Shown here: positions 47,895 through 58,013 of the stretch, one piece after another
Layout of the letters: each line of letters opens with the position of its first letter
How positions within the stretch are numbered: position 1 is the first letter of the stretch
Source of the DNA: Ardenticatenaceae bacterium
Lineage (GTDB): Bacteria; Chloroflexota; Anaerolineae; Promineifilales; Promineifilaceae
Assembly: GCA_020634415.1 (NCBI GenBank)
Contig: JACKBT010000022.1
Span: 1 to 64,000, forward strand
Direction of reading: 5' to 3'
Length of the DNA stretch: 64,000 bases
Translations under genes and position numbers: made by a program
Notes under the pieces: model-generated
The model's input: the letters and a program-made list of their open reading frames with translations, nothing else
Told to the model about the DNA's origin: nothing
The model's database searches: none

Positions 47895-49241
47895 TTAAAC
47901 GGCTTCCAGATGGAGGCCGTTTTTGGTGGGGGTGAACGGCCGTTCGGCCACGCGCATCAATAACGCCTCTTTAGGCCGCAGTGTCACCACCGTATCCACC
48001 TCCACCGGTTTGGTCACAGCCAGTTGCAAACCCACCTGCTGCATCATCGTTGCCAGAATAACCTGCGCTTCCAGCATGGCAAACATATTGCCCAGGCAGA
48101 TGCGCGGCCCGGCACCAAAGGGGTAGTAGGTGTAGCGGTCGGGTTCGTTGGTTTTGTCTAGAAAGCGCTCTGGTTTGAAGGCTGTTGGCTCGGCGTACAG
48201 GTCGGGGCGGCGGTGGGTGATGTAGCTGAGGAAGAGAACGACAGCCCCCTGCGGAAAGGTGGTGTCATTGGCCGTGAAGGGTTCCATCACGGTGCGGCCA
48301 AAGCTGAATGCGGGTGGATAGAGCCGCATGGTTTCTTTGATCACCGCTTCGAGCAGAGGCAGTTCGGGCAGTTTGTCGAAGGTGATGGGCTGATCGCCTA
48401 AAACTGCGTCAATTTGCTCGTAAAGCTGTTGGGCGATGGCCGGATACTGACTGAGCAGATACCAGGTCCAGGTGAGGACGGCGGCGGTGGTTTCGTGGCC
48501 GGCCACAAACAACGTTAAACATTCGTCTAAAAGCTGTTGTTCGGGCATGGGATTGCCCTCTTCATCGCGCACGCTGAGGAGCATGGAGAGCAGATCGCCG
48601 TGATCGGCGGCGGTGGCCTGCCGCTGGTGGATGATTTGGCGCAGGAGGTTGGTGATGTTTTGGTAGGCGGCGTGGTAGCGGCGGTTTTGGCGGGTGGGCA
48701 GCCATTGGGGCGGCACGAAGGTCATTTTGAGCTGTTCTTCGACGATGCTGAGGATTTCTTTCATGTTGTGGCCGATAACGGCCGTTTCCTCGGCAATATC
48801 CACGTCATACATCGTCTTGGCAATGATGCGCAGTGTGAGATGGGTGAGGGCTTCATCTACCGGCAGCGTCTGGCCCGGCTGCCAGCTCTCGACCATTTCC
48901 CGCGCATAGTGGGCCATGATGTCGGTGTAGGCGCGAATGCGGGTGGCATGGAAGGCGGGCTGCATCAGTTTGCGCTGCTTTTTCCAGAGGTCGCCTTCGG
49001 CGACAAAGACGCCGTTGCCCATGAAGCGTTTGAAGACGCGGGAGACGAAGGGGTCGCGGTGCAGTTGGTGGGAGTGGTGGACCAATATTTCGCGCACGGC
49101 GGCTGGTTCGGAGACGAGGAACATGTGCATGTTGAGAACTTTGAGGTGGGTGATGCCGCCATCGGTAACGGCCGTTTTCTGGGCGAACCCCAGCATGTCT
49201 TTTTGAAATTCTTTAATTTCAGCAAAACTCAGTTTTTTCAT
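47895..49241 (-). CDS. Cytochrome P450
   Basis: 448 residues, haem-thiolate monooxygenase. The I-helix oxygen motif is AGHETTAAVLTW, the K-helix is ETMRLYP, and the haem-binding loop is FGAGPRICLGN with the Cys ligand. There is no membrane anchor, so it is a soluble bacterial form needing separate redox partners; none are nearby. Substrate unknown. It is transcribed divergently from a TetR-family gene, and a 17-bp palindrome lies 28 bp before its ATG, so it is probably derepressed by a hydrophobic ligand. Confidence 0.95.
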   Translation of the reverse strand: MKKLSFAEIKEFQKDMLGFAQKTAVTDGGITHLKVLNMHMFLVSEPAAVREILVHHSHQLHRDPFVSRVFKRFMGNGVFVAEGDLWKKQRKLMQPAFHATRIRAYTDIMAHYAREMVESWQPGQTLPVDEALTHLTLRIIAKTMYDVDIAEETAVIGHNMKEILSIVEEQLKMTFVPPQWLPTRQNRRYHAAYQNITNLLRQIIHQRQATAADHGDLLSMLLSVRDEEGNPMPEQQLLDECLTLFVAGHETTAAVLTWTWYLLSQYPAIAQQLYEQIDAVLGDQPITFDKLPELPLLEAVIKETMRLYPPAFSFGRTVMEPFTANDTTFPQGAVVLFLSYITHRRPDLYAEPTAFKPERFLDKTNEPDRYTYYPFGAGPRICLGNMFAMLEAQVILATMMQQVGLQLAVTKPVEVDTVVTLRPKEALLMRVAERPFTPTKNGLHLEAV

Positions 49242-49269
49242 TGCGATTTATCCATTTTGGGTTAAGATG

Positions 49270-49286
49270 TGCAACACAGTGTTGCA
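49270..49286. promoter_or_regulatory. TetR-type operator, P450 side
   Basis: Perfect palindrome TGCAACAC-A-GTGTTGCA in the 127-bp space between the divergent P450 and TetR genes. Confidence 0.7.
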
Positions 49287-49340
49287 GAAGTGATGGTACT
49301 CATTTGTGTAGTGGCTGTCAATCAACAAAACGGCCGTATC

Positions 49341-49356
49341 TGTTGCCTTTGCAACA
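49341..49356. promoter_or_regulatory. Second inverted repeat, TetR side
   Basis: TGTTGC-CTTT-GCAACA, using the same GCAACA half-site but in the opposite arrangement. It ends at the ribosome binding site (AAAGGAG) of the regulator gene, consistent with autoregulation. Confidence 0.55.
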
Positions 49357-49368
49357 AAGGAGCAAAAT

Positions 49369-49947
49369 ATGTCGCAAAATCGTGATCCGCGTACCCGCCG
49401 CACCCAACTCTCGATTCGGGATGCCTTTATAGAGCTGCTGATTGAGCAGGGTTTTGACAACATCACCGTTCGCGCCGTCACCGAACGGGCCAATATTAAC
49501 CGCGCCACTTTTTACCGCCACTACACCGATATTCATGATCTGGCGGCCCGTTTGACCGACCTGCTGTTTGTGGATGTCGTCAGTAACCTGCGCGAGGAGC
49601 CAGCCATCAGCAATGTTGAAAGTTGGGCAATTTTATTTGAGCATGTGGCCCAATATGCCCCTTTTTACCGGGCAATGATCGGCCCACAAGGTATTCCTGG
49701 CTTTCGTGATCGGGTGCAGGAGTCGGTGGAGGTGGAGATGCGGCAGTGGCTGGAAACAAGCGGGGTTGATGAGGCGCAAGCCAAAATGCCCACGGCATTG
49801 GCAGTGCGTTATATGGCGGCGGCACAGGTGGGGTTTATTCAGTGGTGGCTGGAGAATGAGATGCCGTTTGCGCCGATGGAAGCGGCCGTTTATCTGATGA
49901 ATTTGCACTTCCAGGGAGGTGGGTGGGCCTTAGGTTTTAGTCCTTAA
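49369..49947 (+). CDS. TetR/AcrR-family transcriptional regulator
   Basis: 192 residues. The N-terminal helix-turn-helix reads IRDAFIELLIEQGFDNITVR then AVTERANINRATFYRHYTDI, the standard TetR signature; the rest is a helical ligand-binding domain (ILFEHVAQYAPFYRAMIG). It is divergent from the P450 gene with two inverted repeats between them, so it likely represses the P450 and itself. AAAGGAG precedes ATG 49369. It has two more ACGGCCGT-like sites around its promoter (49330). Confidence 0.94.
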   Translation: MSQNRDPRTRRTQLSIRDAFIELLIEQGFDNITVRAVTERANINRATFYRHYTDIHDLAARLTDLLFVDVVSNLREEPAISNVESWAILFEHVAQYAPFYRAMIGPQGIPGFRDRVQESVEVEMRQWLETSGVDEAQAKMPTALAVRYMAAAQVGFIQWWLENEMPFAPMEAAVYLMNLHFQGGGWALGFSP

Positions 49948-50025
49948 CTCCCGTCTAGCCCGATTTGACAAAGAAAAGCAGTGCGGTTACAGTGTGGCTT
50001 CAATAGAGATAGGATAAGGTAAGCA

Positions 50026-50433
50026 TTGAGAGTTAAAACTACTCCATCTTTTACGAAACAAAAATTTGGCCTCCATCTGCTGTTGGTAGCCACCATATTT
50101 TTGTATCTTTACAGTCCTCTCTTGGATCATTGGTTGGGAGTAGAGTCTTATGCCAGACCGCACACCCATATAAACGCTGCCACAAGCTATTTAAGCACCC
50201 TTCCAGAACACGCAAAGACGCATTCAGGAGCCAATTCCGAAGCTCATGAAGAGGGCGTTTTTTGTTTCCTGGATATCAATGCCCTGCTCTCAATGGCGCT
50301 TTCCATTAACACAAGTCCGGTGTGGTTTCTGGATTTCGCCCACCATGCCTCGTTGGTGTTTGATCTGTTGCCTTCCTATTTCTTATTCCCTTCAGTCTAT
50401 CTTTCTTCCCTGGATCCCCCTCCCCGTTTTTAA
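50026..50433 (+). CDS. Hypothetical small exported or membrane protein
   Basis: 135 residues from a TTG at 50026 (AAGGT upstream); no family recognised. One N-terminal membrane segment (FGLHLLLVATIFLYLYSPLL), then a His/Ala-rich polar stretch (ARPHTHINAATSYL, HAKTHSGANSEAHEEG), a second hydrophobic part and a SLDPPPRF tail. Small proteins of this shape with a Pro-rich end often accompany metal transport loci. Just upstream of the C39 ABC exporter and the zinc operon, so a metal-related or export-accessory role is possible but unproven. Confidence 0.5.
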   Translation: MRVKTTPSFTKQKFGLHLLLVATIFLYLYSPLLDHWLGVESYARPHTHINAATSYLSTLPEHAKTHSGANSEAHEEGVFCFLDINALLSMALSINTSPVWFLDFAHHASLVFDLLPSYFLFPSVYLSSLDPPPRF

Positions 50434-50681
50434 GTAAACAAATAATCTAACTGAATACTTTGCTGAGTCAGGCTTGATGGGTCTCTACTGTAGACCTAAC
50501 TGTGTCAGCCTATATACACCGCTGATGGGCAGTTTGGATGCCCTTGCGGTGTGGGTTATCGGCAGCTCTCTGGCTCTGGCAGCAGTGTTCATCTCCCCTT
50601 TTTGTTTGTAAAACGCAATGATGCTGGTGCCAGTTTGGTCTGGGCATTGGCAGCTATGAATGGAGCGATTGTAAGCGGATC
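50434..50681. other. Intergenic region before the peptide exporter
   Basis: No open frame with coding character; no clear promoter or repeat beyond a weak GGTCT/AGACC pair near 50481-50497. Confidence 0.3.
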
Positions 50682-52868
50682 ATGTTTAGAAGAAAGCGAC
50701 GGGTACCTGTTATTTTCCAAATGACATTTGCAGATTGTGGTGCGGCTTGCCTGGCAATGATCCTGGGTTATAACGGCCGTAAAACCCGTTTAGCCGAGTG
50801 CCAGAATTATTTCAGCAGTGGCCGTGATGGTGTGAGTGCCTGGGAGATCATAGAAACGGCCGAAAAATTTGGCCTGGAAGCAAGCGGTTACGAAGTAGAT
50901 GCCAGCGATTTAGATCAGGTGCCGCTGCCAGCCGTTGCCTATTGGAACAATAACCACTTTGTGGTGGTTGAGGCCTGGTCGCCGCAAAGTATTTCTGTTG
51001 TTGATCCGGCAAACGGCCGTGTCACCTACACCCCATCCCAATTCAAAGAACAGTTCTCCGCAGTCATCCTCACCTTTACACCAAACCAAAGCTTTAACAC
51101 AAAAAGCAAAAACAGCCCTTCCCTCTGGCGCACCTACCTGCAAGGTATGCTCCAGACCCGCAGCGCTCCCCGGTTCCTAGCCAAAATCATCACAGCCTCC
51201 ATCGCCCTCCAGCTCCTAAACATAGCTTTACCCCTCCTCACCCGTTACCTCATTGATGACATCATTGGCCTAAACCTCACCAAGCCCCTAAACATTTTCG
51301 GGTTGGGCCTCCTCTCCCTTATTCTGTTCTTTCTCTTCACAACCTACGTGCGCGGGCGCTGGCTCGTTTTGCTGCAAGCACAGTTCGACAAGCAAATCGT
51401 GCTCAACTTCTTTGCCCATATTTTGTCACTCCCCATCACCTTCTTCCAGCGGCGCACCAGCGGCGACCTGCTCAACCGCTTAGGCAGCAACATGACCATC
51501 CGAGAAACCTTCACCAACAACACCCTTTCCACCATTCTCGATGGCTTACTCATCCTCACTTACCTCATCATCCTCATCACCTGGTCGCCGACCTTCGCCG
51601 CCATTGTTCTACTGTTAGCCCTCATTCAGGTTGCTTTATTAATTGCCACCGCCCCCCAAGTATACGTTTTGACCCAAAGAGCCTTAATTGGCGAAGTAAA
51701 CTCCCACAGCTACTTGCTGGAAGCCCTTCACAACATCGTTACCCTCAAAGCCTTTGGGGCCGAAGATAGGATTCAAAGCCATTGGTCTAAACTCTTCCAC
51801 GATTATTTAGATATTTTGATCAAACAAAGCTTCCTGGCTGCCGCCATCGAGGCCACCTTATCCACCATCCGCCTGTTTTCGCCCCTTTTGCTGCTGTGGG
51901 TGGGAGCCTTCTTCGTTCTCAACAACGGCATGTCGCTGGGCACAATGTTGGCCCTGAATGCCCTGGCGATCTCTTTTCTCACGCCATTATCGTCGCTGAT
52001 CGAAAATGGGCAGCAGTTACAATTCGTCGGGGCACATTTGGCCCGCGTTGCCGATGTGATGGAAACCCAGCCCGAACAAAACTCATCAGAGACAAAGTTG
52101 TCCCCTGCGTTAAGTGGTCAGATTGACATGCAAAATATCTCTTTTCGATATGACAAAAGCGGCCCTCTCGTATTGCAAAATATATCGCTTGGCATCCAAC
52201 CAGGGCAAAAGATTGCCCTGGTGGGGCATACAGGCTCAGGCAAAAGCACCCTAGCCGCGCTGCTGTTAGGTCTCCATATTCCTGAAGAGGGGCAGATGTT
52301 TTTTGATTCCTATCCTCTTGGGGCTTTGCATTATCAATCTATTCGTCGCCAATTCGGGGTGGTGTTACAAGAAATCTCCCTCTTCAACGCCTCTATACGA
52401 GACAACATCGCCCTGCAAGACCATCATATGCCCCTGGAAAAGATCATTAGGGCCGCCCGATTAGCCCAGATTGACGATGAAATTCAAGCAATGCCGATGG
52501 GGTATGAGACTGTTTTGGGTGAAGACGGCAGCGGTCTTTCGGGGGGACAAAAGCAGCGGCTTATGTTGGCTCGTGCGCTGGTAAATCAGCCCAAAATACT
52601 TTGCCTGGATGAGGCGACCAGCCATCTGGATGCGGCCACTGAACAGCAAATTATGCACAACTTAAACTCGCTGGGCATCACCCAAATTGTGATTGCCCAC
52701 CGCTTGAGTACGATTCAAGACGCTGACCAGATTTTTGTTTTGGACAAAGGCCAGATTATTGCTTGTGGTACTCATGATGAGCTGCTGGCTGATAATGAGC
52801 ATTTTGCTCTGTTGGCTGGCAAACAAATTCTTTCTCGCGTTCCTCAGCTTGACCGTGACAGGCTGTGA
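50682..52868 (+). CDS. Peptidase-containing ABC transporter (C39 family peptide exporter)
   Basis: 728 residues. It cleaves a double-glycine leader and exports the mature peptide. C39 domain (1-135): Gln13, Cys19 in FADCGAACLAMI, His92 in NNHFVVVE and Asp108 in VVDPANG, all expected catalytic residues. Membrane domain (~155-450) with six helices. ATPase domain: Walker A GHTGSGKST (~515), signature LSGGQKQR (~620), Walker B ILCLDEATSHLD and the switch His in VIAHRLST. The substrate gene follows 30 bp downstream: a 30-residue peptide with a GG leader. No separate membrane-fusion (HlyD-like) gene is present, consistent with a one-membrane cell envelope or an independent exporter. Confidence 0.95.
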   Translation: MFRRKRRVPVIFQMTFADCGAACLAMILGYNGRKTRLAECQNYFSSGRDGVSAWEIIETAEKFGLEASGYEVDASDLDQVPLPAVAYWNNNHFVVVEAWSPQSISVVDPANGRVTYTPSQFKEQFSAVILTFTPNQSFNTKSKNSPSLWRTYLQGMLQTRSAPRFLAKIITASIALQLLNIALPLLTRYLIDDIIGLNLTKPLNIFGLGLLSLILFFLFTTYVRGRWLVLLQAQFDKQIVLNFFAHILSLPITFFQRRTSGDLLNRLGSNMTIRETFTNNTLSTILDGLLILTYLIILITWSPTFAAIVLLLALIQVALLIATAPQVYVLTQRALIGEVNSHSYLLEALHNIVTLKAFGAEDRIQSHWSKLFHDYLDILIKQSFLAAAIEATLSTIRLFSPLLLLWVGAFFVLNNGMSLGTMLALNALAISFLTPLSSLIENGQQLQFVGAHLARVADVMETQPEQNSSETKLSPALSGQIDMQNISFRYDKSGPLVLQNISLGIQPGQKIALVGHTGSGKSTLAALLLGLHIPEEGQMFFDSYPLGALHYQSIRRQFGVVLQEISLFNASIRDNIALQDHHMPLEKIIRAARLAQIDDEIQAMPMGYETVLGEDGSGLSGGQKQRLMLARALVNQPKILCLDEATSHLDAATEQQIMHNLNSLGITQIVIAHRLSTIQDADQIFVLDKGQIIACGTHDELLADNEHFALLAGKQILSRVPQLDRDRL

Positions 52869-52898
52869 ACAAACCCATCTTATAAGGAGGTATGAACC

Positions 52899-52991
52899 AT
52901 GAAAAAATTGACCAAAGCGGATTTGCAGAAAGTTGTTGGTGGTAAAGCCAAACCCGTTGGCTGTGGCTGCGGCAGTGGTGGCGGAAAATAA
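52899..52991 (+). CDS. Double-glycine leader peptide, Cys-Gly-rich core (putative bacteriocin, RiPP or metallophore precursor)
   Basis: A 30-codon gene with a strong AAGGAGG (52884-52890) eight bases before the ATG. The leader MKKLTKADLQKVVGG has the LxxxxL-type amphipathic helix and ends in GG, the exact cleavage signal of C39 peptidases. The predicted mature product is 15 residues: it begins KAKPVG, carries Cys-Gly-Cys-Gly, then SGGGK, so net positive with two Cys spaced by one Gly. It lies 30 bp after its matching exporter. Too short for routine gene calling, hence probably unannotated. No modification enzyme is adjacent, so an unmodified peptide, or one with a disulfide or bound metal, is likely. 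Two strong hairpins follow. Confidence 0.8.
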   Translation: MKKLTKADLQKVVGGKAKPVGCGCGSGGGK

Positions 52992-53032
52992 TCGTATCGG
53001 CCTTTGTTTAATTCTCTCTTAGGGCGAGACGA

Positions 53033-53065
53033 AGGCTTATTAATCTCACGGTAGTTAATAAGCCT
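53033..53065. terminator. Hairpin 1 after the peptide gene
   Basis: AGGCTTATTAA (53033-53043) and TTAATAAGCCT (53055-53065), a perfect 11-bp stem. Likely the end of the exporter-peptide transcript, although no long T-run follows. Confidence 0.5.
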
Positions 53066-53079
53066 GAGTCCCATTTAGG

Positions 53080-53112
53080 ATTGGGTGAGATGTCGCTAGC
53101 ATCTCACCCAAT
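53080..53112. terminator. Hairpin 2 after the peptide gene
   Basis: ATTGGGTGAGATG (53080-53092) and CATCTCACCCAAT (53100-53112), a perfect 13-bp stem with a 7-base loop. Confidence 0.5.
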
Positions 53113-53135
53113 TCGTGTGTAAAATAGTCCGAAAG

Positions 53136-53150
53136 TGATATTTTGTATCA
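53136..53150. promoter_or_regulatory. Fur/Zur-like palindrome before the zinc operon
   Basis: TGATA-TTTTG-TATCA, 15 bp; 11 of 14 positions agree with the Fur-family 7-1-7 pattern TGATAAT-N-ATTATCA. It lies 92 bp before the ZnuA-like gene, consistent with zinc-dependent repression. Confidence 0.5.
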
Positions 53151-53241
53151 ATTAGTATAGACTAGTTGATGTCACTAAGCAAGCTCTTGGCCTCAAGGTT
53201 GGGTGTCAGGGCACATATAACTCAGAAAAGAGAGGTTTTCT

Positions 53242-54351
53242 ATGATTGCAAAGCAAAGATTTTATTCACTTTTATGGAGTTTATGCTGCGTTTTAGCTTT
53301 CGGACTGTTGCTGATAGGCTGCACTAGCTCAGCAGAACCAGAGGAAACACCGAATTCTAATACGACAGATGAACATGATGTAGAACATGAACATGATGAT
53401 AGCACCGAGACTTTGAGTCTGCCGGAGTTGGGGGCAGCGGCGTTGAACGGCCGTAAATTAACCGTCGTCGCTACCACCAGCATCATTGGGGATGTGGTGG
53501 CCCAAGTGGGAGGCGAGGCTATTGACCTGACTATATTGATGGAAGCGGGGCAGGACCCGCACAGTTATGAACCAGGGGCGCAGGAGTTAACGGCCGTTGC
53601 CGATGCCGATGTCATCTTTATCAATGGCTGGGACTTAGAAGAAAGTTTGGTTGACAGCCTGGAAAGCATAGGCGAAGAGGCACTGGTAGTTCCAATCTCT
53701 GCCAATATCCATCCGCTGGCCTTTGGCGAAGATGAACATGAGCACGAAGGTGAGGAGGCAGAACATGAAGAAGAAGATGAACATGATGAAGGAGAGCACC
53801 ATCACAGCGGTGCTGATCCTCATGTCTGGTTTAGCATTCATAACGTAGAACAGTGGATGGAAAACGTCGAACACGTTCTCAGCGAACTCGATCCGACCCA
53901 TGCCGGAACGTATGAAGCCAATGCAACTGCCTACATGACAGAGCTGGCAGAGCTAGAAGCTTATGCTGAAGCCCAATTGGCCCCGATTCCCACTGAAAAG
54001 CGTTTTTTGGTAACCAACCATGATTCGTTTGGTTATTTTGCCGAGGAATACGATTTCACCGTTTTAGGCACCGTGATTCCCAGCATAAGCACTGCAGCCG
54101 AACCATCCGCCAGCGATTTGACTGACCTGATTGCCGAAATGGAAGAACACACTGTGTGCACCATCTTCACCGAAACGACAGTGAACGACACACTGGCACA
54201 AACAGTGGCCAGTGAGCTGTCGGGCTGTGATGCCGTGCAGGTTCTGAAGCTGTACACTGGCGCTGTGGGGTCGGAAGGCAGCGGCGCAGAAAGCTACATC
54301 GGCATGTTCCGTACCAATATAGACACGATAGTTGACGGCTTAAAACAATAA
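53242..54351 (+). CDS. Zinc/manganese ABC transporter substrate-binding lipoprotein (ZnuA-like)
   Basis: 369 residues. Lipobox LLIGCTSS, so membrane-anchored. Captures Zn(II) outside the membrane. Cluster-9 SBP features: VVATTSIIGDVVAQVGGEA, a His ligand in GQDPHSYEPGAQEL, a long His/Glu/Asp loop (~160-190, HEHEGEEAEHEEEDEHDEGE), HHHSGADPHVWF, the SNHDSFGYFAEEY-like His region and IFTETTVND. A second acidic His tract (HDVEHEHDDS) lies near the N-terminus. No permease or ATPase partners of the ZnuBC type are in the window, so it may use a distant pair or the operon below. Confidence 0.92.
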   Translation: MIAKQRFYSLLWSLCCVLAFGLLLIGCTSSAEPEETPNSNTTDEHDVEHEHDDSTETLSLPELGAAALNGRKLTVVATTSIIGDVVAQVGGEAIDLTILMEAGQDPHSYEPGAQELTAVADADVIFINGWDLEESLVDSLESIGEEALVVPISANIHPLAFGEDEHEHEGEEAEHEEEDEHDEGEHHHSGADPHVWFSIHNVEQWMENVEHVLSELDPTHAGTYEANATAYMTELAELEAYAEAQLAPIPTEKRFLVTNHDSFGYFAEEYDFTVLGTVIPSISTAAEPSASDLTDLIAEMEEHTVCTIFTETTVNDTLAQTVASELSGCDAVQVLKLYTGAVGSEGSGAESYIGMFRTNIDTIVDGLKQ

Positions 54352-54372
54352 TTAATATAAGGAAGATGAATC

Positions 54373-55062
54373 ATGTTCAGATATTTAACTCTCATTTGTT
54401 TATTGATTGGCTTAACGGCCGCTTGCACCCCAACCACCCAAGAACCAACAGAAACCCAACTCACAGAGTCTGAGGAAATGCACGAAGATGAACATGAATC
54501 CGAAGAGGATCATGATCATGAAGATGAAGCAGACCATGAAGACGAACACGAACATGAAGAAGGTGACGATCACCGCGAACATGGGGCACACGAACATGGA
54601 GTCGCTGAATTAACCATTGCCTGGTCCGGCAACGAATTGGCCATTGATTTAGAGACACCTGCTTTTAACATCCTGGGGTTTGAACACAGCCCCCATACGG
54701 AGGAAGAACAAAAACTTCTGGATGAAAGTCTGGCGACATTAGAAGAGGGCAATCTCTTGCTCATCCTTCCCCAAGATGCTGATTGTACGCTTATGGATAC
54801 GGCCGTTCACACAGAGCTAGGCGAAGCAGATCATGCAGACGAAGATGCTGAACACGATGAAGCCGAAGAAGAAACCCACTCTGATATTGATGTTGCCTAC
54901 AACATTCAATGCCAACATCCCGACAAAATCGAAGCCTTAGATGCCAGTGAGCTATTTGCTCACTTCCCTAACTTTGAAGCCTTACATGTCCAATGGGTTT
55001 CGGACACACAACAATCAGCCCAAGACCTGACCCCAGATGATTCCCTGTTATCACTCAAGTAA
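54373..55062 (+). CDS. DUF2796 (ZrgA-like) lipoprotein
   Basis: 229 residues. Lipobox LTAACTPT. A very His/Asp/Glu-rich stretch (HEDEHESEEDHDHEDEADHE, then more) precedes the DUF2796 body GAHEHGVAELTIAW, DLETPAFNILGFEHSPHTEEE and a second half with FPNFEALHVQWVS. DUF2796 proteins are the ZrgA component of zinc-uptake clusters in proteobacteria; a zinc-binding role outside the cell is inferred. It starts 21 bp after the ZnuA-like gene. A hairpin lies between it and the ATPase gene. Confidence 0.85.
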   Translation: MFRYLTLICLLIGLTAACTPTTQEPTETQLTESEEMHEDEHESEEDHDHEDEADHEDEHEHEEGDDHREHGAHEHGVAELTIAWSGNELAIDLETPAFNILGFEHSPHTEEEQKLLDESLATLEEGNLLLILPQDADCTLMDTAVHTELGEADHADEDAEHDEAEEETHSDIDVAYNIQCQHPDKIEALDASELFAHFPNFEALHVQWVSDTQQSAQDLTPDDSLLSLK

Positions 55063-55087
55063 GCAATCATCCGTTTGAAATTCAGCG

Positions 55088-55120
55088 AGATTGGGTCAAT
55101 CTTGAAGATTGACCCAATCT
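55088..55120. repeat. Family E hairpin between DUF2796 and ATPase genes
   Basis: AGATTGGGTCAATCT - TGA - AGATTGACCCAATCT, 15-bp perfect arms; sister of 25747-25779. Confidence 0.8.
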
Positions 55121-55154
55121 GAAAATCGCTAACTTATTTGCGAGGGCTTACTCG

Positions 55155-55850
55155 ATGTCCGAACCAATTATCGAACTACAAAACCTCCGCTTTGCCTGGC
55201 CTAAACAAGACCATGATCTCCTCTACATTCCTGAACTAGTCATTGAAAAAGGCAAACACCTCTTCATCCAAGGGGCCAGCGGTAGTGGCAAAACCACCCT
55301 ACTCAACCTTTTGACTGGCATTAATGTAGCCAATTCTGGCTCTATTAAAGTCTTAGACACTCCGTTAGAAACATTAAGCACAAGGCAGCGCGATCAATTC
55401 CGTGCTGATCACTTGGGGGTCATCTTTCAACAATTCAATTTGTTACCCTATCTCTCCTTGTTGGAAAACGTGCAACTACCCTGCTGGTTCTCCGCCAGAA
55501 AAAAGCAAAATGCTGATCATATCCAGGAAACCAGCCTGCGCTTACTGGAGGAATTGAACATACCAATGACCTTAGTGCATAAACCCATAGCCGAGTTAAG
55601 TGTGGGTCAACAACAAAGGGTGGCTGTGGCCCGTGCTTTAATTGGCAATCCCGAAGTGGTTATCGCCGATGAACCCACCTCCGCCCTGGATACTAAAAAT
55701 CGCAACCGCTTCCTTGAACTGTTATTCCAAGAAGCCACCCAGCAGGGCAGCACCCTGGTCTTCGCCAGCCATGATCCCTATATTGCCAGCCAATTTGAGC
55801 GTGTCATTGACCTGGTTGAGATCAATCAGGCGGGGAGTAATTCCTTATGA
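55155..55850 (+). CDS. ABC transporter ATP-binding protein (LolD/MacB-like)
   Basis: 231 residues. Walker A GASGSGKTT, Q-loop VIFQQFNLLPYLS, signature LSVGQQQR, Walker B VVIADEPTSALD and switch His in FASHDP. It energises the FtsX-like permease encoded by the overlapping next gene. In zinc-related Zrg clusters this pair acts with the DUF2796 and DUF3299 proteins; the transported object is not settled. The start at 55155 has GAGGG nearby, and its stop overlaps the permease start by 4 bp. Confidence 0.93.
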   Translation: MSEPIIELQNLRFAWPKQDHDLLYIPELVIEKGKHLFIQGASGSGKTTLLNLLTGINVANSGSIKVLDTPLETLSTRQRDQFRADHLGVIFQQFNLLPYLSLLENVQLPCWFSARKKQNADHIQETSLRLLEELNIPMTLVHKPIAELSVGQQQRVAVARALIGNPEVVIADEPTSALDTKNRNRFLELLFQEATQQGSTLVFASHDPYIASQFERVIDLVEINQAGSNSL

Positions 55851-57103
55851 TATTTGTCAGAATTGTTCTCAAAAGTGCCTGGCATCGTCGTGTCAGCTTA
55901 CTTTTAACCATCCTCTCCATCACCATTAGCATCACCTTGCTCTTGGGCGTGGATAAAATCCGCAAGGAGGCCAAAAGCAGCTTCATTAACACCATCTCCC
56001 AAACCGATCTGATTGTTGGTGCCCGCAGCGGACCTATCAATTTACTGTTGTACAGTGTGTTTCGCATTGGCAATGCCACCAATAATGTCTCTTGGGAGTC
56101 TTACCAAGAAATTACCGAATTGGATGAAGTGGCCTGGTCTATCCCTATTTCACTGGGAGATTCGCACCAGGGCTATCGTGTCATGGGCACAAATCAAGAT
56201 TATTTTGACCATTATCATTACGGGCAAAATAAGAATTTATCCTTCACTGATGGCGGTGAATTCACCGATGTTTATGACGCAGTGCTAGGGGCTGATGTTG
56301 CCAAGTCACTTAATTACAAGTTGGGTGATGACATTATCATTGCACATGGTCTGGTATCTACCGAGTTTTCTCAACATGATGACAAACCCTTTGTTGTCGT
56401 GGGCATTTTGCAAAAAACAGGCACCCCTGTTGATCGTACTATTCATGTTTCTTTAGAAGGTATTGAGGCTATTCACATTGATTGGAGTGGTGGAGCGCGA
56501 ATGCCTTTGCAGTTAACGGCCGATCAGGCACGAAAAATGGATTTGCAGCCGAAGACGATCACCGCCTTTATGGTCGGTTTAGATAACCGCATCAATACCT
56601 TTCGTTTACAACGAGCCATCAATGAGTATCAGGAGGAGCCCCTTTTGGCTATTATACCGGGCGCAACCTTGGCTGAACTTTGGCGAACGATCTCTATTTT
56701 TGAGCAAGTTCTCTTAGTCATCTCCGGGTTTGTCTTGGTGGCTGGCCTCTTGGGGATGCTGACAACCATCTTATCAACCCTCAATGAACGCCGCCGCGAA
56801 ATGGCTGTTTTGCGGGCCATTGGTGCCCATCCTTATCACATTATCCTGTTATTCATGTTGGAAACATTTTTCATTGTTTTAGCCGGATGTTTGACCGGAA
56901 TAGGGGTGTTGTATGCGCTGCTCTTTCTGGCACAGCCTCTTTTAATCAGCAAGTACGGCATTAGCATCGCTGTGACGCTGCCTGATTTAGGGCAATGGGG
57001 GCTGTTTATTATTGTTATTGCTCTTGGTGTTTTTGTTAGTTTGATACCAGGTGTTATTGCTTACAGGCGATCCTTGCAGGATGGCCTGACAATTAAAATT
57101 TGA
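55847..57103 (+). CDS. FtsX-like ABC permease
   Basis: 418 residues with an N-terminal helix (VSLLLTILSITISITLLLGV), a large extracytoplasmic domain (residues ~50-270, with TDLIVGARSGPINLLLYSVF, IPISLGDSHQGYRVMGTN) and three C-terminal helices (VLLVISGFVLVAGLLGMLTT, NERRREMAVLRAIGAHP), the MacB/FtsX layout. It overlaps the ATPase gene by ATGA (55847-55850). It probably acts mechanically on an envelope complex rather than as a simple metal channel; the zinc link comes from context. Confidence 0.92.
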   Translation: MIFVRIVLKSAWHRRVSLLLTILSITISITLLLGVDKIRKEAKSSFINTISQTDLIVGARSGPINLLLYSVFRIGNATNNVSWESYQEITELDEVAWSIPISLGDSHQGYRVMGTNQDYFDHYHYGQNKNLSFTDGGEFTDVYDAVLGADVAKSLNYKLGDDIIIAHGLVSTEFSQHDDKPFVVVGILQKTGTPVDRTIHVSLEGIEAIHIDWSGGARMPLQLTADQARKMDLQPKTITAFMVGLDNRINTFRLQRAINEYQEEPLLAIIPGATLAELWRTISIFEQVLLVISGFVLVAGLLGMLTTILSTLNERRREMAVLRAIGAHPYHIILLFMLETFFIVLAGCLTGIGVLYALLFLAQPLLISKYGISIAVTLPDLGQWGLFIIVIALGVFVSLIPGVIAYRRSLQDGLTIKI

Positions 57104-57116
57104 CGGAGGCATGGTG

Positions 57117-58013
57117 ATGTTATTTTCAGACATAAATTATAAACGAATAAAGATAGGCTGGATTTTATTAGGTTTGGTGCTGGTCTCTTGTGTTAGCTCC
57201 GAGCAATCAGCCAGTCAGGCAACGGCCACACCAATCGTTGCCTATGGTGCGTCTTTGGATGAATGGGAAGCGGCCAAACAGGAAAGTGCATCTCAACCAG
57301 CGAATGACGCTGCCTCGTTACCTCAAGTGCCCGCAGATCCCATTGTTACTGAATCTACTTTGACCAGTCCGAGTGAAGTAGCCGTTACGGAAAGTGGTGC
57401 TTTGACCACAGCTATACCGATAACAGTCACACAGTCAGATAACAGCATGTCATCCGTCTCAGCTGATAGTGGAGGTGGTGTGGAGACAACGGCCGTTACG
57501 CCCACTTCAAAAATCGAGTTAGCCAATTCAGAAATTGGGGAAGGATACCTGGAGCTGAATTGGAACGATCTGATTCCATCTGATTTTCAACCAGAAGCTA
57601 TTATGGTCAGGTACCAGGAAAGACTCAGCCAGTTTGAAGACGGCGACCCTGAAGCTATGGATGTGTACATGGAGATGCAAGAGGAATTCAATAATGCGCC
57701 AAGAAATGAAGCATTAAATAACATGTTCATTAAACTGCCGGGTTTTATCGCTCCACTTGAATATGTAGATGGCTATGTTACCGAATTCTTGCTCGTACCA
57801 TATTTTGGTGCCTGCATCCATGTACCACCTCCACCCGTCAATCAGACAGTTTTGGTCAAAGTTGCAGAAGGTTATGGCATTAGAATCGAAGAGTCGTTTA
57901 ATCCGTTTTGGATATTGGGAAAATTAATCACTGAAGGCACGACAACCGATTTGGCTGAAGCAGGTTATTATATTGAAGGTGCGATTGTTGAACCCTATGT
58001 CTATTCCCCCTAG
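57117..58013 (+). CDS. DUF3299 lipoprotein
   Basis: About 298 residues. N-terminal helix then lipobox LVLVSCVSS, a Ser/Thr-rich linker, then the DUF3299 region: YLELNWNDLIPSDFQPEA, NNMFIKLPGFIAPLEYVDG, and FLLVPYFGACIHVPPPPVNQ (Cys and His conserved in the family). DUF3299 is the usual last member of the DUF2796-ATPase-permease set. The Cys-His pair in YFGACIHVPPPP may bind metal. GGAGG spacing favours ATG 57117; ATG 57111 is the alternative. It ends the operon. Confidence 0.85.
   Translation: MLFSDINYKRIKIGWILLGLVLVSCVSSEQSASQATATPIVAYGASLDEWEAAKQESASQPANDAASLPQVPADPIVTESTLTSPSEVAVTESGALTTAIPITVTQSDNSMSSVSADSGGGVETTAVTPTSKIELANSEIGEGYLELNWNDLIPSDFQPEAIMVRYQERLSQFEDGDPEAMDVYMEMQEEFNNAPRNEALNNMFIKLPGFIAPLEYVDGYVTEFLLVPYFGACIHVPPPPVNQTVLVKVAEGYGIRIEESFNPFWILGKLITEGTTTDLAEAGYYIEGAIVEPYVYSP

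What the first reader, a model, noticed from the sequence alone, without database searches (positions are those of the whole stretch)
50682..52991. Minimal peptide-secretion module: C39 ABC exporter plus an unannotated 30-residue double-glycine peptide with a Cys-Gly-Cys-Gly core
Directly after a complete C39-peptidase ABC transporter lies a 93-bp gene with a strong AAGGAGG and leader MKKLTKADLQKVVGG, which fits the exporter's cleavage rule. The predicted product is only 15 residues, cationic, with CGCG and a Gly-rich tail, and no modification enzyme is present. Neighbouring zinc-uptake genes make a metal-chelating or metallophore-like peptide a real alternative to a bacteriocin. I know of no described peptide with this core.
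Basis: partly seen in the sequence, partly recalled or inferred. Interest (0 to 1): 0.9.

Follow-up and report, generated by a model that had tools for sequence, protein, structure and literature searches.

The report
Tiny secreted peptide with dedicated exporter
A bacterium, probably of the Chloroflexota, carries a gene for a very short peptide directly behind the transporter that most likely cuts and exports it; this is a new example of a well-known kind of peptide secretion, and a link to the zinc genes around it is possible but not supported.

Summary
A complete C39-peptidase ABC exporter (50682-52868) is followed after 30 bp by a 30-codon ORF (52899-52991) with the only + strand AAGGAGGT in the window and a full bacteriocin-type double-glycine leader (TIGR01847, 15.9 bits; cut-off 15.7). 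The strict leader motif with start and ribosome-binding site occurs once in the window and in 0 of 60 simulated sequences. In 10 of 80 homologous exporter loci a double-glycine ORF starts within 1 kb downstream, with longer leaders and other cores; 23 of 80 have LanM, the window none. Best reading: a cognate pair that secretes a roughly 15-residue cationic peptide of bacteriocin or signal type; target unknown. But 0 of 3 readable zinc loci have the exporter, 0 of 80 exporter loci have the zinc genes sought, and the one operator-like site lies after the peptide, behind two hairpins. No relative of the peptide was found in the collections searched; the three closest exporters could not be examined as DNA. 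New member of a known kind.

The parts
50682..52868 (+). C39-peptidase/ABC exporter (PCAT/AMS type), 728 aa, predicted to cut and export the peptide
   Evidence: Pfam PF03412, PF00664, PF00005; Cys19, His92, Asp108 line up with LahT and PCAT1 peptidase domains
52884..52891 (+). Shine-Dalgarno AAGGAGGT of the peptide gene
   Evidence: sequence; one of two AAGGAGGT in the window
52899..52943 (+). 15-residue double-glycine leader MKKLTKADLQKVVGG
   Evidence: TIGR01847 15.9 bits, cut-off 15.7; motif count
52944..52991 (+). predicted mature 15-mer KAKPVGCGCGSGGGK (two Cys, one Ser, no aromatic residue) and stop codon
   Evidence: translation; calculated pI 9.4, charge about +2.7 at pH 7, average mass 1305.5
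53028..53112 (+). two strong hairpins between the peptide gene and znuA, possible end of the transcript; no T-tract
   Evidence: inverted repeats I1, I2; folding z-score -5.97 for 52992-53241; not listed by the terminator scan
53136..53150 (.). palindrome TGATATTTTGTATCA in front of znuA, operator-like (inferred; not part of the pair)
   Evidence: single exact match in the window; exact TGATATTTTRTATCA otherwise only at two places, in G100 and G346, among 139 loci
50026..50433 (+). 135-aa membrane-type ORF (TTG start) upstream of the exporter; its family precedes zrgA in two relatives; setting, not part of the pair
   Evidence: 23 homologues; next to zrgA in L136 and L137
53242..58013 (+). zinc-uptake cluster znuA, zrgA, ABC ATPase, FtsX-type permease, DUF3299; setting
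   Evidence: Pfam ZnuA, ZrgA, ABC_tran, FtsX, DUF3299

Best explanation
The exporter and the 30-residue ORF are a cognate pair. The leader docks on the C39 domain through Leu-12, Asp-8, Leu-7 and Val-4, Cys19 cuts after Gly-Gly, and the ABC core pushes out the roughly 15-residue, unmodified or only thiol-oxidised cationic peptide KAKPVGCGCGSGGGK. The most likely role outside is that of a small bacteriocin-type or signalling peptide (I put antagonism at about 0.4, signalling at about 0.25, a metal role at about 0.12, other or modified the rest). Shown by sequence: gene order, leader family, peptidase and ABC domains with active-site residues. Inferred: translation, cleavage, export, lack of modification, and the role.
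For: Complete C39/TMD/NBD exporter; peptidase domain aligns with LahT (6mpz, E 3.8e-23) and PCAT1 with Cys, His, Asp in place; leader model TIGR01847 above cut-off over its full length; strict leader motif with start and SD once in the window against 0 in 60 simulated sequences; among homologous exporters 33 of 80 loci have at least one + strand double-glycine ORF against 8 of 80 on the other strand, and in 10 of 80 one starts within 1 kb after the exporter match, nearest 56 bp; same arrangement in G346, G339 and G257 among 7 further places; no LanM in the window, 23 of 80 loci have one; PCAT rule from PMC6959990 (passages). Small double-glycine proteins that need a C39 transporter and serve biofilm formation rather than killing are reported for Synechococcus (PMC4997328, passages).
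Against: TIGR01847 exceeds its cut-off by 0.2 bits only. No relative of the peptide was found in the searches made, so conservation is not shown. The leader (15) is shorter than all 43 ATG-start leaders near homologous exporters (minimum 22; one ORF left out of that set, TTG-start in L027, would have 12). No immunity protein, receptor or two-component system among the neighbours scanned. The exporter is below the curated cut-off of each of the 25 NCBIfam models shown of 191, and its own start has no strong SD. A P450 lies 1.4 kb upstream on the other strand. A modification enzyme elsewhere cannot be excluded, since no genome is held.
Confidence: 0.75

Rival explanations
1. The peptide is a zinc-binding, metallophore-like or zinc-delivery peptide that works with ZnuA/ZrgA: the exporter and peptide are a working part of the zinc cluster in which they lie.
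For: The pair lies between the 135-aa gene whose homologue directly precedes zrgA in G404 and G420 (L136, L137) and the znuA-zrgA-ATPase-permease-DUF3299 genes, all on one strand; two Cys in a CGC core. A contig of 4,438,610 bp is given for both the close exporter P0004 and the permease P0172, which suggests one genome, not linkage.
Against: 0 of 3 zinc loci with readable sequence upstream of zrgA have the exporter: G100, G404 and G420; in G001 and G352 the contig ends there. 0 of 80 exporter loci match znuA, zrgA, the permease or DUF3299 at E up to 1e-5, flanks up to 6 kb and often shorter. The operator-like palindrome lies only in front of znuA, none within 3 mismatches in 49900-53135, and two hairpins separate the peptide from znuA. 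No His in the core; CxC not enriched among such cores.
Confidence: 0.12
2. The precursor is a RiPP whose modification enzyme lies elsewhere in the genome, or is the upstream P450 (the exporter is kin to LanT exporters).
For: G346, among the closest exporters with readable DNA (52%), has a LanM of 1050 bits and a mersacidin-type precursor beside it; 23 of 80 loci have LanM. A P450 stands at 47895-49241, and 2 of 80 exporter loci (L045, L076) also hold a P450 match.
Against: No LanM in 64 kb and no other recognised RiPP enzyme among 33 of 37 long ORFs; TIGR03898 is not among the six families listed for the peptide at E up to 10, though filters drop weak matches; in a quick tree the window's clade of 10 exporters is apart from the LanM-labelled rows, but the loci of the other nine could not be read. 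The P450 is divergent, next to a TetR gene, and the core has no aromatic residue (that P450 RiPP enzymes act on aromatic residues is recalled).
Confidence: 0.15
3. The ORF is not a gene; the exporter serves peptides elsewhere.
For: Length of 30 codons, no relatives found, borderline family score.
Against: Strong SD, strict motif count 1 against 0 in 60, location 30 bp behind the exporter, the only such leader in 64 kb.
Confidence: 0.08

Closest known systems
Double-glycine (bacteriocin-type) leader peptides, TIGR01847
   Same: 15-position leader model matched end to end, 15.9 bits against 15.7
   Different: core KAKPVGCGCGSGGGK matches no family; short and Gly-rich, not the amphipathic helix usual for class II bacteriocins (recalled)
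PCAT/AMS exporters: LahT (6MPZ), PCAT1 (4RY2), ComA (8HF4)
   Same: C39 peptidase, TMD, NBD in one chain; catalytic residues aligned
   Different: below the cut-offs of the NCBIfam models shown; over the whole chain ABCB1 chains score slightly higher than PCAT1, 380 against 377 bits
Type 2 lanthipeptide loci with LanT and LanM (PMC3951391, passages)
   Same: kindred exporter and precursor directly downstream in relatives; that paper also reports orphan LanT homologues, one of them in Ktedonobacter
   Different: window has no LanM and a short leader not matched by TIGR03898
EbfG/PteB of Synechococcus elongatus (PMC4997328, passages)
   Same: small GG-motif proteins that need a C39 transporter for efficient secretion
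   Different: four proteins in biofilm development; no sequence relation tested here
ZrgABCDE zinc system of Vibrio (PMC9817125, passages)
   Same: window cluster has zrgA, ATPase, permease, DUF3299 (zrgE); in relatives the 135-aa gene stands where zrgD stands
   Different: exporter and GG peptide are not among the five genes in that paper's table; znuA is added

Membership tests
Double-glycine leader peptide (TIGR01847) | score at or above the curated cut-off over the leader | tested here: met
   15.9 against 15.7 bits, positions 1-15 of 15; margin thin
Double-glycine leader peptide (TIGR01847) | L-12, acidic -8, L-7, GG at -2/-1 | tested here: met
   LTKADLQKVVGG against the rule in PMC6959990 (passages); D in place of E
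PCAT/AMS exporter | C39 peptidase with Cys-His-Asp, ABC membrane and ATPase domains in one chain | tested here: met
PCAT/AMS exporter | cleavage of the neighbouring leader | not testable with these tools
   needs enzyme assay
NHLM exporter (TIGR03796) | score above cut-off | tested here: not met
   607.7 against 853.3 bits
Type 2 lanthipeptide | LanM encoded in the locus | tested here: not met
   no hit in the window; rest of the genome not held
Type 2 lanthipeptide | mersacidin-type leader TIGR03898 | tested here: not met
   not among the six families listed at E up to 10
Class II bacteriocin | neighbouring immunity protein | tested here: inconclusive
   the small membrane-type neighbour examined, the 135-aa ORF, belongs with zinc genes in relatives; a 45-aa ORF at 50474 was not examined
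Class II bacteriocin | antimicrobial activity | not testable with these tools
   needs assay
Zrg zinc-uptake system (for the exporter and peptide) | linkage to zrg genes kept in relatives | tested here: not met
   0 of 3 zinc loci with readable upstream sequence; 0 of 80 exporter loci; the three closest exporters not testable
Zrg zinc-uptake system (for the exporter and peptide) | shared operator upstream | tested here: not met
   only site at 53136, downstream of the peptide; that the site is a zinc operator is inferred

The most novel reading that the evidence does not exclude
A zinc-linked peptide export module: the bacterium has placed an exporter and a secreted Cys-Gly-Cys-Gly peptide inside its Zrg zinc cluster, the peptide acting as a ribosomally made zinc carrier, or as a thiol peptide released when zinc is scarce, for ZnuA and ZrgA at the cell surface.
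Probability: 0.1. Interest if true: 0.75.

Novelty: new member of a known kind. Interest (0 to 1): 0.36.

Why it matters
It adds a very small predicted exporter substrate (15-residue leader, shorter than the 43 compared, and a 15-residue core) in a two-gene form that is easy to test with one synthetic precursor and one purified peptidase domain. If the zinc placement proved functional, it would join peptide secretion with zinc uptake; among the 7 papers listed by my one search for that combination I recognised no example from titles and abstract starts.

Tried and rejected
Zinc role: raised when the 135-aa gene was found before zrgA in relatives, lowered by the missing linkage and the operator position. 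Mobile insertion into the zinc cluster: no shared direct or inverted word of 9 bp or more between 50433-50700 and 52991-53242, so no sign of a target-site duplication. P450 as modifier: put aside because it is divergent, beside TetR, and the core has no aromatic residue; not excluded (see rival 2). CGC as special signature: 7 of 43 cores have CxC, 6.0 expected from shuffled cores, 3 have CGC. For that count I kept 43 of the 48 + strand ORFs listed and dropped five with TTG or GTG starts (L002, L023, two in L027, one in L045); one dropped L027 ORF has a CKC core and a 12-residue leader. Viral pattern for D[L/F]QKVVGG: 16 loci; 9 lie in open frames of 457 codons or more, and none looks like a leader-core peptide, though L113 is a 29-codon frame (stop to stop, without ATG) ending VVGGYCPVC that I did not pursue. 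Peptide against 56 genomes: matches in 22 of 56 at E up to 10, best 0.062, 38 places listed, 12 read; none has leader and CGC core. L123 among them meets the strict leader motif but ends six residues later; such a motif is expected by chance about once per 2 Mb (0.033 per 64 kb). Search for the close exporters in more genomes: 396, 56, 154, 367 and 400 genomes (overlapping sets, E limits 1e-190 to 1e-235), none above 54% identity to the query. Herbidospora L076 as a clean pair without enzyme: put aside, since one of its six scanned neighbours is a P450.

Limits of the controls: the - strand figure of 8 of 80 contains three that look like real GG peptides (L040, L055, L078). Loci differ in length and many end at contig ends, so LanM and peptide counts are lower bounds. 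The palindrome search at two mismatches gave 7 matches in the window against 5.1 expected, so only the exact match counts. The tblastn of a 30-residue, Gly-rich peptide with a low-complexity filter is insensitive. PMC10957091 was seen in passages and not used.

Full report
What is there. The exporter ORF 50682-52868 has all three parts of a peptide-processing ABC exporter. Its peptidase part aligns best among solved chains with LahT (6mpz) and then PCAT1, with the Cys, His and Asp of the active site in place; the whole chain matches PCAT1 over 5-703, with ABCB1 chains scoring slightly higher on the ABC part alone. Thirty bases after its stop codon begins the 30-codon ORF, behind TAAGGAGGT. The leader reaches the curated cut-off of TIGR01847 (15.9 against 15.7 bits) over all 15 positions; five other models, ComC and a Chryseobacterium leader among them, are listed below their cut-offs. 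At the default threshold no Pfam or NCBIfam family matched the peptide.

More than chance. A strict six-frame leader motif hits once in 64 kb, against a mean of 0.03 in 60 first-order Markov sequences; with start codon and Shine-Dalgarno it is 1 against 0 in 60. A looser motif with start and SD is 1 against a mean of 0.5, which by itself would be unremarkable. The leader fits the consensus L(-12)xxxE(-8)L(-7)xxxxGG reported for PCAT substrates, with Asp at -8; the same paper says position -4 likely sets specificity, Val-4 facing Ile137 in LahT and Met-4 facing Gly135 in PCAT1 (PMC6959990, passages only). In the alignment the window exporter seems to have Val128 opposite LahT Ile137, compatible with its Val-4; residue numbering was not checked, so this is soft.

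Relatives. With one motif-plus-SD rule, 33 of 80 loci have at least one double-glycine ORF on the exporter's strand and 8 of 80 on the other; in 10 of 80 one begins within 1 kb after the exporter match. Of 7 further exporter places read, three (G346, G339, G257) have such an ORF within about 130 bp; in G346 (exporter 52% identical) a LanM of 1050 bits follows. LanM is found by tblastn in 23 of 80 loci and not in the window. A clean pair without any enzyme was not established elsewhere: Herbidospora L076 has two GG peptides behind its exporter and no LanM hit, but a P450 among six scanned neighbours. In a quick tree of 91 exporters, rooted at the midpoint, the window falls with P0002, P0003, P0004 (support 100) in a clade of 10 (support 100), apart from the LanM-labelled rows; the DNA around the other nine was not available, and further genome sets did not hold them.

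The peptide is an orphan in these searches. No match in 72,556 plasmid or 50,697 phage records; 16 viral loci with the D[L/F]QKVVGG pattern do not look like leader-core peptides; in 56 genomes of the order of G346, 22 have matches at E up to 10, best 0.062, and none of the 12 of 38 places that I read has leader and CGC core. Its leader is shorter than all 43 compared (minimum 22), and CxC is not enriched in those cores (7 against 6.0 expected); five ORFs with other start codons were left out of that set.

The zinc setting. Downstream lie znuA, zrgA, an ABC ATPase, an FtsX-type permease and DUF3299, the set that in Vibrio parahaemolyticus is zrgA, zrgC, zrgB, zrgE with zrgD as a fifth gene (PMC9817125, passages). 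Upstream of the exporter is a 135-aa membrane-type ORF with 23 homologues; in G404 and G420 its homologue directly precedes zrgA. Six contig lengths are shared between the hit lists of this protein and of the permease (9726, 7258, 24477, 6439, 5100, 4959), from which I infer that the two are often linked. Against it: no exporter in the three zinc loci with readable upstream sequence, G100, G404 and G420, the contigs of G001 and G352 being cut; no match to znuA, zrgA, permease or DUF3299 at E up to 1e-5 in any of 80 exporter loci. Compared by eye, the 120-row hit lists of exporter and permease share two contig lengths: 4,438,610 (P0004, P0172; probably one chromosome, linkage unknown) and 2839 (P0106, P0244; different sources, probably chance).

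Regulation. The palindrome TGATATTTTGTATCA occurs exactly once in the window, at 53136-53150 in front of znuA; at two mismatches the count is no more than chance. Among 139 loci, exact TGATATTTTRTATCA is found only in L098 and L100 (one place, before zrgA of G100) and twice in L138, a G346 locus with a piece of the 135-aa family, an ArsP-type permease, DUF1980 and CobW genes. I infer a zinc-type operator; that the L138 genes serve zinc is recalled, and no regulator was tested. No such site within three mismatches lies in 49900-53135, before the 135-aa gene, exporter or peptide. Two hairpins stand between peptide and znuA, without the T-run of an intrinsic terminator. The pair therefore looks like its own transcription unit. 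L136 and L137 also lack the site before their 135-aa gene at up to two mismatches, so the absence is moderate, not strong, evidence.

Judgement. It works like, and by leader and exporter domains belongs to, double-glycine peptide secretion through a peptidase-containing ABC exporter. It is not shown to be a bacteriocin, lanthipeptide or metallophore. In print: one search listed two papers for double-glycine, leader, Chloroflexi and C39, of which PMC3951391 (passages) reports LanT homologues with LanM in Ktedonobacter and Herpetosiphon and one Ktedonobacter LanT with none; searches listed nothing that I recognised as this peptide from titles and abstract starts.

Noticed in passing
window 50026-50433: Uncharacterised 135-aa membrane-type protein family (YSPLLDH, RPHTH, EEGVLC, SSLDPPP motifs), no Pfam match, 23 homologues, directly before zrgA in G404 and G420; candidate zinc-homeostasis protein in the place of ZrgD.
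   Followed up: partly
window 53136-53150; L100 10122-10136; L138 10906-10936: Shared exact palindrome TGATATTTTRTATCA at metal-type loci only (3 of 139 loci, two places), a candidate zinc-repressor operator of this lineage.
   Followed up: partly
L026 204-410 and 559-774 (Ktedonobacteraceae MAG): Two double-glycine peptides with cores rich in His, Cys and Tyr near a C39 exporter; they look more like secreted metal-binding peptides than the one in the window.
   Followed up: no
L020 8365-8938 (Thermosporothrix hazakensis): Two precursors with WWGGG repeats ending in CGC or CGCGGC-type tails, beside LanM and a C39 exporter.
   Followed up: no
L076 2691-3902 and 8183-8598; L077 8220-8602 (Herbidospora): Tandem GG peptides with Trp/Tyr-rich cores behind a C39 exporter; in L076 a P450 lies upstream, a possible P450-type RiPP locus.
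   Followed up: no
window 53028-53112: Two strong hairpins in tandem, one a perfect 13-bp inverted repeat; their 10-base arm words occur nowhere else in the window.
   Followed up: partly
window 53242-58013: znuA joined to a Zrg-type cluster; the ATPase and permease score best with LolD/bacteriocin-export and LolCE/FtsX models, not with ZnuC or ZnuB.
   Followed up: no
L100 13535-15283 (G100): Subtilisin-like protein ending in a Gly-Cys tail (DDGGCGCCG) upstream of the zinc cluster.
   Followed up: no
window 47895-49947: Divergent cytochrome P450 and TetR regulator pair upstream of the zinc cluster; judged unrelated to the peptide but not excluded.
   Followed up: partly
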